Below, one piece after another: positions 57,194 to 61,456 of a DNA stretch of 64,000 nucleotides (position 1 is the first letter of the stretch; each line of letters opens with the position of its first letter). Source of the stretch: Fuscibacter oryzae (GTDB lineage Bacteria; Pseudomonadota; Alphaproteobacteria; Rhodobacterales; Rhodobacteraceae). A model generated the notes under the pieces. The model was given only the letters and a program-made list of their open reading frames with translations, was not told where the DNA came from and ran no database searches. Made by a program: the position numbers and the translations under genes. Location of the stretch: positions 558,001 through 622,000 of the forward strand of contig NZ_JAESVP010000001.1 of NCBI RefSeq assembly GCF_016765795.1. The letters are read 5' to 3'.

Positions 57194-57940
57194 ATGACGG
57201 GCAGAAAATTGCGGCTGGGCGTGAACATTGACCATGTGGCCACCGTACGCAACGCACGCGGCTCTGCCTGGCCTGATCCGTTGCGCGCGGCCCTGCTGGC
57301 CGAGGCGGCGGGGGCCGATGGCATCACCGCCCATCTGCGCGAAGACCGCCGCCACATCCGTGATACGGATATGGAGGCGCTGCGCGCGGGCCTTGGCATT
57401 CCGCTGAACTTTGAATGCGCCGCCACGGATGAAATGCAGGCCATCGCCCTGCGGCTGAAACCGCATGCCGTCTGCCTTGTTCCCGAAAAGCGCGAAGAAC
57501 GCACCACCGAGGGCGGGCTGGATGTGGCCAGCGACCAGAACCGCCTGACAAGCTATATTGCCCCCCTGCGCGCAGCGGGCTGCCGGGTAAGCATGTTCAT
57601 CGGCCACGACTCCCGCCAGATCGAGGCGTCGGCCCGGATCGGCGCGGCGGTGGTCGAGCTGCACACCGGCCATTATTCCGACCTGCACGCCGAAGGCCGT
57701 CTGGACGAGGCCGAGGCCGAACTTGCCGCCCTGCGCAACGGTGCCGCCCTGGCCGACAGCCTTGGGCTGGAGGTTCACGCCGGTCACGGCCTGACCTATG
57801 ACAACGTGGCCCCCATCGCCGCCATTCCGCAAGTGATAGAGCTGAACATCGGCCATTTCCTGATCGGCGAGGCGATCTATCTGGGTCTTGGCCCCGCGAT
57901 TGAGGAAATGCGCCGCCGTATGGACGAAGCCCGGCGCTAG
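57194..57940 (+). CDS. pdxJ: Pyridoxine 5'-phosphate synthase
   Basis: Condenses 1-deoxyxylulose 5-phosphate with 3-amino-2-oxopropyl phosphate to form pyridoxine phosphate. 248 residues. Hallmarks: LRLGVNIDHVATVRNARG at the N terminus, GITAHLREDRRHI, VPEKREERTTEGGLDV, and HAGHGLTYDNV and ELNIGHFLIGEAIYLGL. ATG 57194 was chosen because it gives the standard N terminus. Confidence 0.97.
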   Translation: MTGRKLRLGVNIDHVATVRNARGSAWPDPLRAALLAEAAGADGITAHLREDRRHIRDTDMEALRAGLGIPLNFECAATDEMQAIALRLKPHAVCLVPEKREERTTEGGLDVASDQNRLTSYIAPLRAAGCRVSMFIGHDSRQIEASARIGAAVVELHTGHYSDLHAEGRLDEAEAELAALRNGAALADSLGLEVHAGHGLTYDNVAPIAAIPQVIELNIGHFLIGEAIYLGLGPAIEEMRRRMDEARR

Positions 57941-57965
57941 GCCGCCGCAAACAACGAGGACCGAA

Positions 57966-58472
57966 ATGTCGAACCGAGTCTGGCTTGTGCTTTTGGGCAT
58001 CCTGTTCCTGCTGGGCGGGGCGCTGACGCTGATCCACCCCTTTCCCGCCTCGCTGACGATTGAGCTGTTCGCGGGCTGGGCCTTCCTGATTCTGGGCGGT
58101 ATGCAAATCATCACTGCCATCCGCCACCGTGCCGAAGGGGCGGCGTTGTGGTTGCTGCTGCTGGGCGGAGTCATGGCGCTGATCGGGGTTGAACTGTTGC
58201 GCAACCCCTTGGGCGGGCTTGTGGCGCTGACCGTGGTGGTGGCGGTATCGTTCCTGATCTCTGGCCTTTTCAAGCTGTTCATCGGGCGCATGGTCCAACC
58301 TGCCCGACTTGGCTGGGGCGTCATGCTGTCGGGTGGGGTCTCTGCCCTGCTGGGGGTGATCGTGCTGGCCGACCTGTCCACCTCTGCCCCGGTGCTGCTG
58401 GGGGTTCTTTTGGGGATCGAGATGCTCTCCACCGGCGTCACCGCCCTTATCATGGCCGCCGCGCTGCGCTGA
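57966..58472 (+). CDS. HdeD-family (DUF308) membrane protein
   Basis: 168 residues with six hydrophobic segments arranged as three similar pairs ([44 protein letters not shown], ...), the DUF308/HdeD pattern. HdeD of E. coli is linked to acid resistance; function here is unknown. It sits between pdxJ and acpS, starting 25 bases after pdxJ. Confidence 0.88.
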
Positions 58473-58474
58473 CC

Positions 58475-58882
58475 ATGATTCTGGGCATCGGCACCGACCT
58501 TGCGAATATCGAACGGATCGAGGCCACGCTGGCCCGCTTTGGCGACCGCTTTCGTGACCGCGTGTTCACCCCCCGCGAACAGCGCAAGGCCGAAAGCCGT
58601 CCGCGCAATGTCGCCGCCACCTATGCCAAACGCTGGGCCGCGAAAGAGGCTTGCTCCAAAGCGCTGGGAACCGGGTTGCGCATGGGAATTTCGTGGAAAG
58701 ACATGGCGGTGTCGAATCTGCACACCGGCCAGCCTGTCATGCACCTGACCGGCTGGGCCGCCGAACGTCTGGCGCAGATGACGCCGCCGGGCCACCACGC
58801 CGTCGTTCACGTCACTTTGACCGATGATCACCCCTGGGCGCAGGCCTTTGTGCTGATCGAGGCCCTGCCAATCGCCCCTTGA
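58475..58882 (+). CDS. acpS: Holo-[acyl-carrier-protein] synthase
   Basis: Transfers 4'-phosphopantetheine from CoA to apo-ACP. 135 residues. Mg ligands: [15 protein letters not shown] (Asp) and the central [15 protein letters not shown] (Glu, catalytic Lys). It begins one codon after the HdeD-like stop and precedes lepB. Confidence 0.96.
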
Positions 58883-58967: not shown

Positions 58968-59747
58968 ATGGCGAAATCCGAAGGCGGCATTCTTGAAACG
59001 GTGAAAACCGTCGTCTGGGCGCTGCTCATCGCGGGCGTCTTCCGCACCCTGTTCTTTCAGCCGTTCTGGATCCCTTCGGAATCGATGAAGGATACGCTGC
59101 TGATCGGCGACTTCATCTTCGTCAACAAGATGGCCTATGGCTATTCCAAATACTCCTGCCCCTTCGGCATCTGCCCGATCTCGGGCCGCCTTCTGGCATC
59201 GGACCCGCAGCGCGGCGATGTGGTGGTATTCCGCCACCCCGTTTCGGGCGATGATTATGTGAAACGGCTGATCGGCCTGCCGGGCGATACGGTTCAGGTG
59301 AAAAATGGCATCCTGTTCCTGAACGGCGCCGAGGTGCCGCAGGAACCCGCTGGCGTTTTTACCGAAAAGTACGAACAGCAAGGCCCGCAGGGCGGCTATC
59401 CGGCTTGCGCCAATGATGCGCAGGCCACCGGCATCTGCGAAAAGCCGCGCGCCCGCGAAACCCTGCCCGGCGGCCGCACCCATGATGTGCTGAACGTGCG
59501 CGACAACAACCCCGGCAGCGACAACACCGATGTGTTCACCGTGCCAGCGGGCCACTACTTTTTCATGGGCGACAACCGCGACAACAGTCTGGATAGTCGC
59601 TTTGCCCAAACCGCAGGTGGCGTCGGCTTTGTTCCGGCCGAAAATCTGCTGGGCCGGGTGGACCGGGTGATGTTCTCGTCTGCAGGCCGGTCGCTGTTCT
59701 ACTTCTGGACCTGGCGGGCCGACCGCTTCTTCAAGGCGGTCGAATAA
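58968..59747 (+). CDS. lepB: Signal peptidase I
   Basis: Cleaves signal peptides of exported proteins at the periplasmic face. 259 residues: one N-terminal transmembrane segment (about 10-30), catalytic Ser39 in PSESM (36-40), catalytic Lys99 in [12 protein letters not shown], and the C-terminal [12 protein letters not shown]. The core contains GYSKYSCPFGICPISGR and a cysteine pair. A second, altered copy follows three bases later. Confidence 0.97.
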   Translation: MAKSEGGILETVKTVVWALLIAGVFRTLFFQPFWIPSESMKDTLLIGDFIFVNKMAYGYSKYSCPFGICPISGRLLASDPQRGDVVVFRHPVSGDDYVKRLIGLPGDTVQVKNGILFLNGAEVPQEPAGVFTEKYEQQGPQGGYPACANDAQATGICEKPRARETLPGGRTHDVLNVRDNNPGSDNTDVFTVPAGHYFFMGDNRDNSLDSRFAQTAGGVGFVPAENLLGRVDRVMFSSAGRSLFYFWTWRADRFFKAVE

Positions 59748-59750
59748 GGC

Positions 59751-60770
59751 GTGCTGCAAGGACTGGTGAAACGGTTCGACCTTTCTGGCACGGCGCCCCG
59801 GCGCGAGGCCATTGTGGTCGTGACCGCACTGGTGGCAGCCGTGGTGCTGCGCGCGTTGACCGAAGCGCGTTATCCGGGCGCAGAGCCGTGGCTGGTTATG
59901 GCCATCGGCCTGATTGCCACCCTGACGATTGCCACGCTGATCCGCCGCCTGCATGACACCGGGCGCTCTGGTATTTACGCGCTGCTGGCCTTGGTCCCCT
60001 ATCTGGGCCCGCTGTTGACGCTGGCGCTGCTGGCCCTGCCCTCTCGACGGCCCTATCTGCAAGGCCACCCCACCTTGCGGGCCATGGGCGGCGTTCTGCT
60101 GGGGCTGCTGGCGGTGCTGTCGCTGTCACGCCTGTTCTGGACACCCTATTGGATTCCGTCCGAGGCCGACAAACCCACCCTTCTGCCCGGCGATTATGTC
60201 GCCGTGCGCCTGCTGTCGCCCACCAGTTTTCAGCGCGGCGATATGGTGGTGTTCCGTCATCCGCTCACCGGCGAAAGCTACATCAAACGATTGATCGGTC
60301 TGCCCGGCGAACGGGTACAGGTAAAAGACGGCATCGTTTTCATAAACGACCAGCCGCTACCCCAGTCGCCCGCAGGCACCTTCACCGAACTCAAGGCCCC
60401 GCAAGGCCCCGCCCACGCCCTGCCGCGCTGCGCCAATGATCCCGTGGGGCTAGGCGGCATTTGCGAAACCCCGCAATTGACGGAACTGCTGCCCGACGGG
60501 CGCAGCCATGCTATCGTCAATCTTGAACCGGCGGGCTTCGCCGACAACACACAGGTTTTTACCGTGCCCGCAGGCCACTATTTCATGCTGGGTGACAACC
60601 GCGACAACAGCCTCGACAGCCGCTTTGCGCAAAGCGTGGGCGGCATGGGCTTTGTTCCGGCTGAAAATCTGGTGGGCCGGGCCTCTCGTGTGATCGTTTC
60701 CGCCGAAGGGCCCTATCTGCTGGCGTTCTGGACCTGGCGCCCCAACCGTTACCTGCTGGGCGTGCAATGA
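59751..60770 (+). CDS. Signal-peptidase-like pseudoenzyme with N-terminal DUF805-type membrane domain
   Basis: 339 residues, GTG start. Residues 1-125 form a membrane domain of about four hydrophobic segments containing [10 protein letters not shown] (65-74), the DUF805 hallmark. Residues 126-339 align with the LepB next door: [53 protein letters not shown]. The catalytic Ser is Ala139 (PSEAD for PSESM) and the following Met is Asp; Lys179 is kept. It is probably an inactive paralogue formed by tandem duplication. rnc overlaps its stop (ATGA). Confidence 0.88.
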
Positions 60771-61456
60771 GACTGTCTGCCGATCTTGTAGAGTTCCAGG
60801 ACCGTCTGGGTCACAAGTTCCGTCAACCGGCACTTTTGCTGCGCGCCGTCACCCATGCCTCGATCTCCTCGGCCACCCGGCCCGATAACCAGAGGCTGGA
60901 GTTTCTGGGCGACCGCGTGCTTGGCCTTGTCATGGCCGAGGCTTTGTTGGGCGCCGATCTTCAGGCGACCGAGGGTCAGCTTGCCCCCCGTTTCAACGCC
61001 CTTGTACGCAAGGAGACCTGCGCCGAAGTGGCCCGCGACATTGGTCTTGGCGATGTGCTGAAACTGGGCCGGTCCGAAATGATGTCGGGCGGGCGGCGGA
61101 AAGAGGCACTGCTAGGTGACGCGATGGAGGCGGTAATTGCCGCCGTTCATCAGGATGCCGGGTTTGAGGCAGCGCGCGGGTTGGTCCTGCGCCTTTGGGG
61201 CAGCCGGATCGGCACCGTCGCCCCCGATGCCCGCGATGCCAAGACCTCGTTGCAGGAATGGGCGCAGGCCCGTGGCATGGCCCCGCCGCACTATACTCTG
61301 ACCGGCCGCGACGGGCCGGACCACCAGCCCCACTTCAAGGTAGAGGTGAGGCTGGACAATGGCGCGGTGGAAACCGCCAGCGCCGGATCGAAACGCGCTG
61401 CCGAACAGGCGGCGGCAGGTGCCCTGCTGGCCCGGATGGAGACCCCGAATGACTGA
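60767..61456 (+). CDS. rnc: Ribonuclease III
   Basis: Cleaves double-stranded RNA (rRNA precursors and others). 229 residues. The RNase III signature is [13 protein letters not shown]; a second catalytic acid is in [14 protein letters not shown]; the C-terminal dsRBD (about 155-225) ends [15 protein letters not shown]. Overlaps era by eight bases. Confidence 0.97.

What the first reader, a model, noticed from the sequence alone, without database searches (positions are those of the whole stretch)
59751..60770. Catalytically altered signal peptidase paralogue fused to a DUF805-type membrane domain
Seen in sequence: it is next to a normal lepB and shares long blocks with it, but the catalytic Ser (PSESM) is Ala and the next Met is Asp (PSEAD), while the general-base Lys ([11 protein letters not shown]) is kept. 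The N terminus has [10 protein letters not shown], a DUF805 hallmark, and several extra membrane segments. A Ser-to-Ala change in LepB is known to inactivate it. Inference: a pseudoenzyme that may regulate, dock to or chaperone LepB, or bind signal peptides without cleaving them. I know of no described function for such a fusion.
Basis: partly seen in the sequence, partly recalled or inferred. Interest (0 to 1): 0.82.

Follow-up and report, generated by a model that had tools for sequence, protein, structure and literature searches.

The report
Inactive-looking twin of signal peptidase
Next to the normal enzyme that trims export signals from proteins, this bacterium keeps a second, membrane-anchored copy whose cutting site is broken; relatives have lost the cutting site of the same copy again and again while keeping the gene, which suggests it may do a job other than cutting.

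Summary
ORF 59751-60770 (339 aa) is a DUF805 membrane module fused to a type I signal peptidase (S26) domain. It lies 3 nt after lepB and overlaps rnc by 4 nt. Ala139 and Asp140 replace the catalytic Ser and the next Met; Lys179 is kept.
Ala139 itself is not conserved: of 4 genomes in the genus, one has Ala, one Ser plus Lys, one Ser but Asp for the Lys, and one lacks the gene.
What recurs is loss of the catalytic pair. Full fusions were found in 26 of 394 family genomes; in class (385) and phylum (398) draws the only one was this window's. Of 33 fusions, 18 lack an intact Ser-Lys pair; 31 of 31 neighbouring LepBs keep it. On the tree, LepBs and fusions lie on two sides of one branch, and pair loss needs 9-10 events.
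No listed match has an inner stop, dN/dS is well below 1, and broken copies evolve no faster than intact ones. This favours a protein kept for something other than cleavage, without excluding a decaying duplicate. What it binds is unknown.
Inactive signal peptidase homologues are known in Gram-positives (SipA, SpsA), so this is a new variant of a known kind.

The parts
58475..58882 (+). acpS (holo-ACP synthase), upstream neighbour
   Evidence: Pfam ACPS, NCBIfam acpS
58968..59747 (+). lepB, the ordinary type I signal peptidase with intact Ser/Met/Lys
   Evidence: Pfam PF10502 163.7 bits, TIGR02227 154.1 bits; state table
59751..60770 (+). DUF805-S26 fusion, signal peptidase paralogue with broken Ser-Lys pair, 339 aa
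59775..60047 (+). DUF805 module (residues 9-99) with [10 protein letters not shown]
   Evidence: Pfam PF05656 E 3.7e-12
60096..60689 (+). S26 domain incl. last membrane helix (residues 116-313)
   Evidence: Pfam PF10502 E 3e-38; Foldseek to E. coli LepB E 1.4e-11 on a model of mean pLDDT 61
60165..60170 (+). GCC GAC = Ala139 Asp140 in place of catalytic Ser and following Met
60285..60287 (+). AAA = Lys179, equivalent of general-base Lys145, kept
60591..60623 (+). [11 protein letters not shown] box, with equivalents of G272, S278, D280, R282, all kept
60767..61456 (+). rnc (RNase III), start overlaps the fusion's stop by 4 nt (ATGA)
   Evidence: TIGR02191 218 bits

Best explanation
This is a tandem paralogue of LepB that carries a DUF805 membrane module and lies in one gene string with lepB and rnc. 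Its ancestor probably had the full Ser-Lys signal peptidase machinery. In this genome the nucleophile is gone, so it should not cleave signal peptides by the known mechanism. I propose that it is kept as a non-cleaving membrane protein: the S26 groove still binds signal peptides or membrane segments, or LepB itself, while DUF805 supplies the membrane contacts. It would thereby modulate LepB or hold substrates for it. Shown here: domain make-up, tight gene order, loss of Ser and Met, repeated loss of the pair across the family, open frames, and purifying selection. Inferred: co-transcription, an active ancestor, lack of activity, a periplasmic position of the S26 domain, retained binding, and any effect on LepB.
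For: Pair broken in 18 of 33 fusions (13 of the 26 of the family draw) against 0 of 31 neighbouring LepBs. Fusions and LepBs lie on two sides of one branch (97/97), and the broken state needs at least 9 changes, or 10 losses if never regained (200 bootstrap trees: 8-12). The Lys-supporting Ser278 falls with the Lys: kept in 6 of 17 Lys-lost against 16 of 16 Lys-kept (p 8.7e-5; 6 of 13 and p 0.001 with one genus collapsed; relatedness otherwise not corrected). None of the 39 matches listed in the stop-tolerant family search has an inner stop. All 5 genomes of one genus keep the gene although all 5 have Met for the Lys. dN/dS of this genome vs its sister: 0.21 (95% 0.16-0.28), S26 part 0.17. Broken and intact end branches have the same median, 0.73 (p 0.46), and three broken/intact sister pairs have near-equal branches (0.13/0.12, 0.88/0.73, 0.41/0.47). 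Nine pocket positions are apolar in 93% of cells of 13 broken copies, 95% of 15 intact ones, and 8 of 9 here. The fusion-rnc overlap is exactly 4 nt in 29 of 30.
Against: No full-length match in 368 of 394 family genomes. End branches are about four times those of LepB, and dN/dS in the sister pair is 3.4 times LepB's. Root-to-tip paths are longer for broken fusions than intact ones (2.5 vs 2.0, medians). Well-supported branches alone force only 3 changes of the broken state. Asp140 puts a charge at a position that by recall lines the S1 pocket, which may spoil binding. In the genus of G068 the pocket and catalytic box are eroded (73% apolar). The Ser loss here probably postdates the split from G001; a neutral gene of this kind would still be open in 16-32% of runs at 0.1-0.05 changes per site, so a recent loss cannot be told from retention by the open frame alone. 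No interaction or binding was tested.
Confidence: 0.45

Rival explanations
1. A dispensable second signal peptidase in slow decay. Catalysis goes first, the frame stays open for a while (helped by translational coupling to rnc), and the gene is finally deleted.
For: No full-length match in 368 of 394 family genomes; absent in G002 of the same genus, where lepB is followed by rnc after 86 nt. In 26 of 26 non-carrier loci examined lepB and rnc are -4 to 117 nt apart, with no room for a relic. Fast evolution and dN/dS 3.4 times LepB's in the sister pair. Many different replacements at the pair. The 4-nt overlap with rnc in 29 of 30 could select for an open frame alone.
Against: None of 39 listed matches with an inner stop, though strongly decayed copies could fall under the E <= 1e-20 limit. 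Amino-acid constraint persists (dN/dS 0.21; S26 0.17). Broken end branches are not longer than intact ones. A neutral simulation over the full G000-G001 distance gave 7.2 stops on average and no open frame in 500 runs; over half of it 4.9 stops and 1% open. Kept in 5 of 5 genomes of one genus without the Lys.
Confidence: 0.3
2. The DUF805 module is the working part; the S26 domain is mainly a scaffold or passenger whose groove matters little.
For: In the genus of G068, which lacks the Lys, the DUF805 part is better kept than the S26 part (62% vs 49% mean identity; mean dN 0.34 vs 0.45). In the hallmark, D and the next G are kept in 100% of 18 broken copies, and in 67% and 87% of 15 intact ones.
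Against: In this genome and its sister the S26 part is the more constrained one (dN/dS 0.17 vs 0.27), and across the 13 other broken copies S26 identity is higher than DUF805 identity (43.9 vs 30.3%).
Confidence: 0.15
3. The protein is still a peptidase, through another nucleophile or with a narrowed substrate range.
For: Lys179, the GDNRDNS box and two cysteines (227, 238) are kept; the fold matches E. coli LepB. About half of the carriers have an intact pair.
Against: No Ser, Thr or Cys at the nucleophile position, and the next residue is Asp. In the Ser-Lys mechanism Ser90 is the essential nucleophile (PMC4049620, passages read).
Confidence: 0.06

Closest known systems
SipA of Streptococcus pyogenes (PMC4049620; abstract, passages and section 9 read)
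   Same: S26 fold with groove kept and catalytic pair lost (Ser to Asp, Lys to Gly); no detectable peptidase activity; shown to be essential for pilus polymerisation
   Different: Gram-positive, in a pilus gene cluster; lost both residues whereas this one keeps Lys. Here the four genes tested at the locus are acpS, lepB, the fusion and rnc; no DUF805 is mentioned in the passages read
SpsA/SpsB pair of Staphylococcus (PMC12445088, passages read)
   Same: an inactive signal peptidase homologue lacking two catalytic residues, in the same organism as an active essential one
   Different: two residues lost rather than one; called dispensable, with no role given in the passages read
LepB / type I signal peptidase (TIGR02227, PF10502)
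   Same: domain and boxes; 58% identical to its own LepB over 206 S26 columns
   Different: nucleophile missing; the loop between the GD motif and RGD is 12 residues (median of 33 fusions) against 50 (median of 31 LepBs); DUF805 in front
DUF5684-S26 protein of Bacteroidota (L030)
   Same: a small membrane domain of unknown function in front of an S26 domain
   Different: another Pfam family; longer protein; catalytic pair not examined here
Tandem LepB duplicates between acpS and rnc in L011/L012
   Same: second S26 gene at the same place in Rhodobacteraceae-like contigs
   Different: no DUF805 length in front; PSGSMK and IKR motifs intact in both copies by eye

Membership tests
Type I signal peptidase (active S26 enzyme) | S26 domain | tested here: met
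   PF10502 131.8 bits, TIGR02227 123.3 bits over cut-off 47
Type I signal peptidase (active S26 enzyme) | catalytic Ser of box B | tested here: not met
   Ala139
Type I signal peptidase (active S26 enzyme) | general-base Lys of box D | tested here: met
   Lys179
Type I signal peptidase (active S26 enzyme) | signal peptide cleavage | not testable with these tools
   needs an enzyme assay
Pseudo-signal-peptidase (SipA/SpsA kind) | S26 fold without a complete Ser-Lys pair | tested here: met
   Ser lost, Lys kept; Foldseek best match E. coli LepB, also SipA 4n31 at E about 5e-6, on a model of mean pLDDT 61
Pseudo-signal-peptidase (SipA/SpsA kind) | substrate groove kept | tested here: inconclusive
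   8 of 9 pocket positions apolar, but Asp at the Met91 position; the pocket list is recalled, the groove strands are from PMC4049620
Pseudo-signal-peptidase (SipA/SpsA kind) | a function without cleavage | not testable with these tools
   only indirect: selection and open frames
DUF805 (PF05656) | Pfam match above the gathering score | tested here: met
   47.1 bits, cut-off 25.7

The most novel reading that the evidence does not exclude
The DUF805-S26 paralogues are a Gram-negative accessory subunit of the signal peptidase. They are made from the same gene string, sit with LepB in the membrane and act by binding signal peptides or membrane segments. Their own cutting is dispensable, which is why the catalytic pair has been lost about ten times in one bacterial family while the protein is kept.
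Probability: 0.15. Interest if true: 0.75.

Novelty: new variant of a known kind. Interest (0 to 1): 0.5.

Why it matters
To my knowledge bacterial type I signal peptidase is described as a lone enzyme, whereas the human one is joined by non-catalytic subunits (PMC13385932, passages read). A Gram-negative paralogue that sits between lepB and rnc and repeatedly drops its catalytic pair gives about ten natural replicates for asking what a signal peptidase fold does without cutting. Pair-intact and pair-broken relatives exist in the same genus, so the question can be tested directly.

Tried and rejected
Sequencing error at Ala139: rejected, since two adjacent codons differ from the sister and the frame is open.

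Strain-private gene: rejected.

Ala139 as a conserved trait: rejected. In the genus the position is Ala, Ser, Ser, or the gene is absent.

Vertical descent with many losses against transfer: left open. LepB and fusion distances do not correlate over all 31 carriers that have both (rank correlation -0.01) nor over 25 one-per-genus carriers (0.04, p 0.37), and only weakly (0.17, p 0.047) after dropping three fast rows.

Genus searches of G165, G092 and G288 added nothing, because each of these genera holds one genome here. In a relatives search of G286 all 14 matching genomes of 293 had been seen before.

Fusion outside the family: the other matches of the class and phylum draws are short stand-alone DUF805 frames; in the 8 loci fetched for them no frame matches LepB. 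In one (L151) the two stops counted inside the match are only the end of such a protein; an earlier thought that it was a pseudogene is dropped.

Structure model: mean pLDDT 61 from a 13-row alignment, so only the S26 fold match is used. With four helices the sidedness is unclear: positively charged loops on both sides of helix 3 suggest that it may be re-entrant (inference).

Literature: searches for DUF805 with signal peptidase, for inactive signal peptidases, and for paralogous or inactive signal peptidase in Rhodobacter/Alphaproteobacteria showed no paper on this fusion in the listings. The one co-hit, PMC9427106, had no passage in its main text. PMC13104630 was opened for SpsA and gave nothing on the signal peptidase.

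The first dN/dS run used untrimmed rows for G778/G779 and was redone. The first rnc overlap table mis-set four rows and was redone; one (G293) still differs.

Full report
What is there. The ORF at 59751-60770 encodes 339 residues from a GTG start, 3 nt after the stop of lepB (58968-59747); its stop overlaps the start of rnc by 4 nt. Pfam finds DUF805 at residues 9-99 and Peptidase_S26 at 116-313, both above their gathering scores. NCBIfam scores it 123.3 bits as signal peptidase I (cut-off 47) in spite of the missing nucleophile. The genome (97.6% complete) has just these two S26 matches at E <= 0.001. By alignment to E. coli LepB and to its own LepB, the nucleophile Ser is Ala139, the next Met is Asp140, the general base Lys179 is present, and the [11 protein letters not shown] box is complete. 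There are two cysteines, 227 and 238.

Relatives. A query of the first 157 residues, then a profile (A2, 26 rows) of the N-terminal part through box B, was run over 394 genomes of 393 genera of the family. With the profile 38 of 394 match at E <= 1e-20; 26 span the whole fusion region and 12 only the DUF805 length. In a draw of 385 genomes of the class and of 398 of the phylum, this window's is the only full fusion; the other 4 and 5 matches are short DUF805 frames of 115-194 residues, and no LepB-like frame lies in the 8 loci fetched for them. With the same genus (G001, G003), a second genus searched whole (G776-G779) and one named contig (L013, Roseobacter sp.), 33 distinct fusions were compared. 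L010 carries the same sequence as G001 and was dropped. The gene follows lepB on the same strand in 31 of 33 and precedes rnc in 30 of 33; in G095 and L013 neither is in the flank held, and G160 ends at its contig. Of the 30 with rnc, 29 overlap it by exactly 4 nt. Loci were fetched for the 30 best LepB matches of a 61-genome search of relatives (57 with a match): 4 are carriers, and in 26 of 26 others lepB and rnc are -4 to 117 nt apart, 20 with the same 4-nt overlap. G002 of this genus is such a non-carrier, with 86 nt between the genes.

The catalytic pair. In 33 fusions the Ser-Lys pair is intact in 15 and broken in 18; among the 26 of the family draw 13 are broken. Ser is changed in 9 (Ala 3, Thr 2, Gly 2, His 1, Glu 1) and Lys in 17 (Ala 6, Met 5, Gly 4, Asp 1, Gln 1). 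31 of 31 neighbouring LepBs keep Ser, Met and Lys. This window is the only one of the 33 that lost Ser but kept Lys. The Met after the Ser is changed in 3 of 33, all in this genus (Asp, Ser, Gly). Within the four-genome genus one sees Ser lost, pair kept, Lys lost, and gene absent. A careful tree without the pair's columns puts LepBs and fusions on two sides of one branch (97/97). The broken state needs 9 changes by parsimony; well-supported branches alone force only 3. If never regained there are 10 losses, with Lys lost 9 times and Ser 6 times (medians of 200 bootstrap trees 10, 9 and 6). Ser278, involved in stabilising Lys145 in E. coli (PMC4049620), is kept in 6 of 17 Lys-lost fusions and 16 of 16 Lys-kept ones. 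This indicates real loss of the catalytic network rather than a misalignment; relatedness was not corrected except by collapsing one genus (p 0.001).

Kept or decaying? For keeping: the family search reads through stops, and none of its 39 listed matches has one inside, though badly decayed copies could fall under its limit. dN/dS between this genome and G001 is 0.21 (bootstrap 0.16-0.28), with 0.17 for S26 and 0.27 for DUF805, against 0.06 for LepB. Under a neutral simulation the full distance would give 7.2 stops (0 of 500 runs open) and half of it 4.9 (1% open); at 0.1 and 0.05 changes per site 16% and 32% stay open. In the genus of G068 all 5 genomes keep the gene with Met for Lys, and dN/dS there is 0.24-0.61 for DUF805 and 0.41-0.70 for S26, against 0.11-0.19 for LepB. 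Median end branches of broken and intact fusions are equal, 0.73, against 0.17 for LepB; root-to-tip paths are somewhat longer for broken ones, 2.5 against 2.0. Against: no full-length match in 368 of 394 family genomes, evolution about four times faster than LepB, and a frame that may be held open by coupling to rnc. The Ser loss here is probably younger than the split from G001, so selection after the loss cannot be isolated with these data. The higher dN/dS in the G068 genus reads as partial relaxation.

Groove and fold. At nine positions taken as the substrate pocket (list recalled; groove strands from PMC4049620; Ala, Gly, Pro and Cys counted as apolar), apolar residues make up 100% of cells in LepB, 95% in intact fusions, 93% in 13 broken fusions, 73% in the G068 genus, and 8 of 9 here, the exception being Asp140. 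The model (mean pLDDT 61) matches E. coli LepB (E 1.4e-11) and, lower, SipA 4n31 (E about 5e-6). Fusions have a short loop between the GD and RGD motifs: median 12 residues against 50 in LepB.

How it most likely works. It is probably a non-cleaving membrane partner or substrate-holder made next to LepB (0.45). A decaying duplicate is the main rival (0.3), then a protein working through DUF805 (0.15), then residual activity (0.06). Only the absence of the canonical nucleophile, the recurrence of pair loss and the constraint are shown; binding, partner and sidedness are inferred.

What is known. Signal peptidase homologues without the pair are described in Gram-positives. SipA lost both residues, keeps the groove, and is essential for pilus polymerisation without detectable peptidase activity (PMC4049620; abstract, passages and section 9 read). 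SpsA lacks two catalytic residues and is dispensable (PMC12445088; passages). No paper on a DUF805-S26 fusion appeared in the listings of searches.

Noticed in passing
L011:2154-3786 and L012:2154-3786: A different tandem duplication of lepB at the same acpS-rnc site in two other MAG contigs, both copies with intact catalytic motifs by eye and without the DUF805 part.
   Followed up: partly
L013:2974-3999 and L053 (G095): Two fusions without lepB or rnc in the flank held; L053 lost the Lys, L013 has an intact pair. They branch first in the fusion clade.
   Followed up: partly
L114-L117 and L057 (genus of G068): A genus with Met for the catalytic Lys in all 5 genomes, four different residues at the Ser position (His, Ser, Ala twice, Thr), an eroded S26 domain and a better-kept DUF805 part.
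   Followed up: yes
L030 (Bacteroidota): A signal peptidase with DUF5684 in front of the S26 domain, a parallel membrane-module fusion.
   Followed up: partly
window 57888-58472: Small membrane protein ORF between pdxJ and acpS, HdeD-like by eye; not tested (the family search that included it failed on another entry).
   Followed up: no
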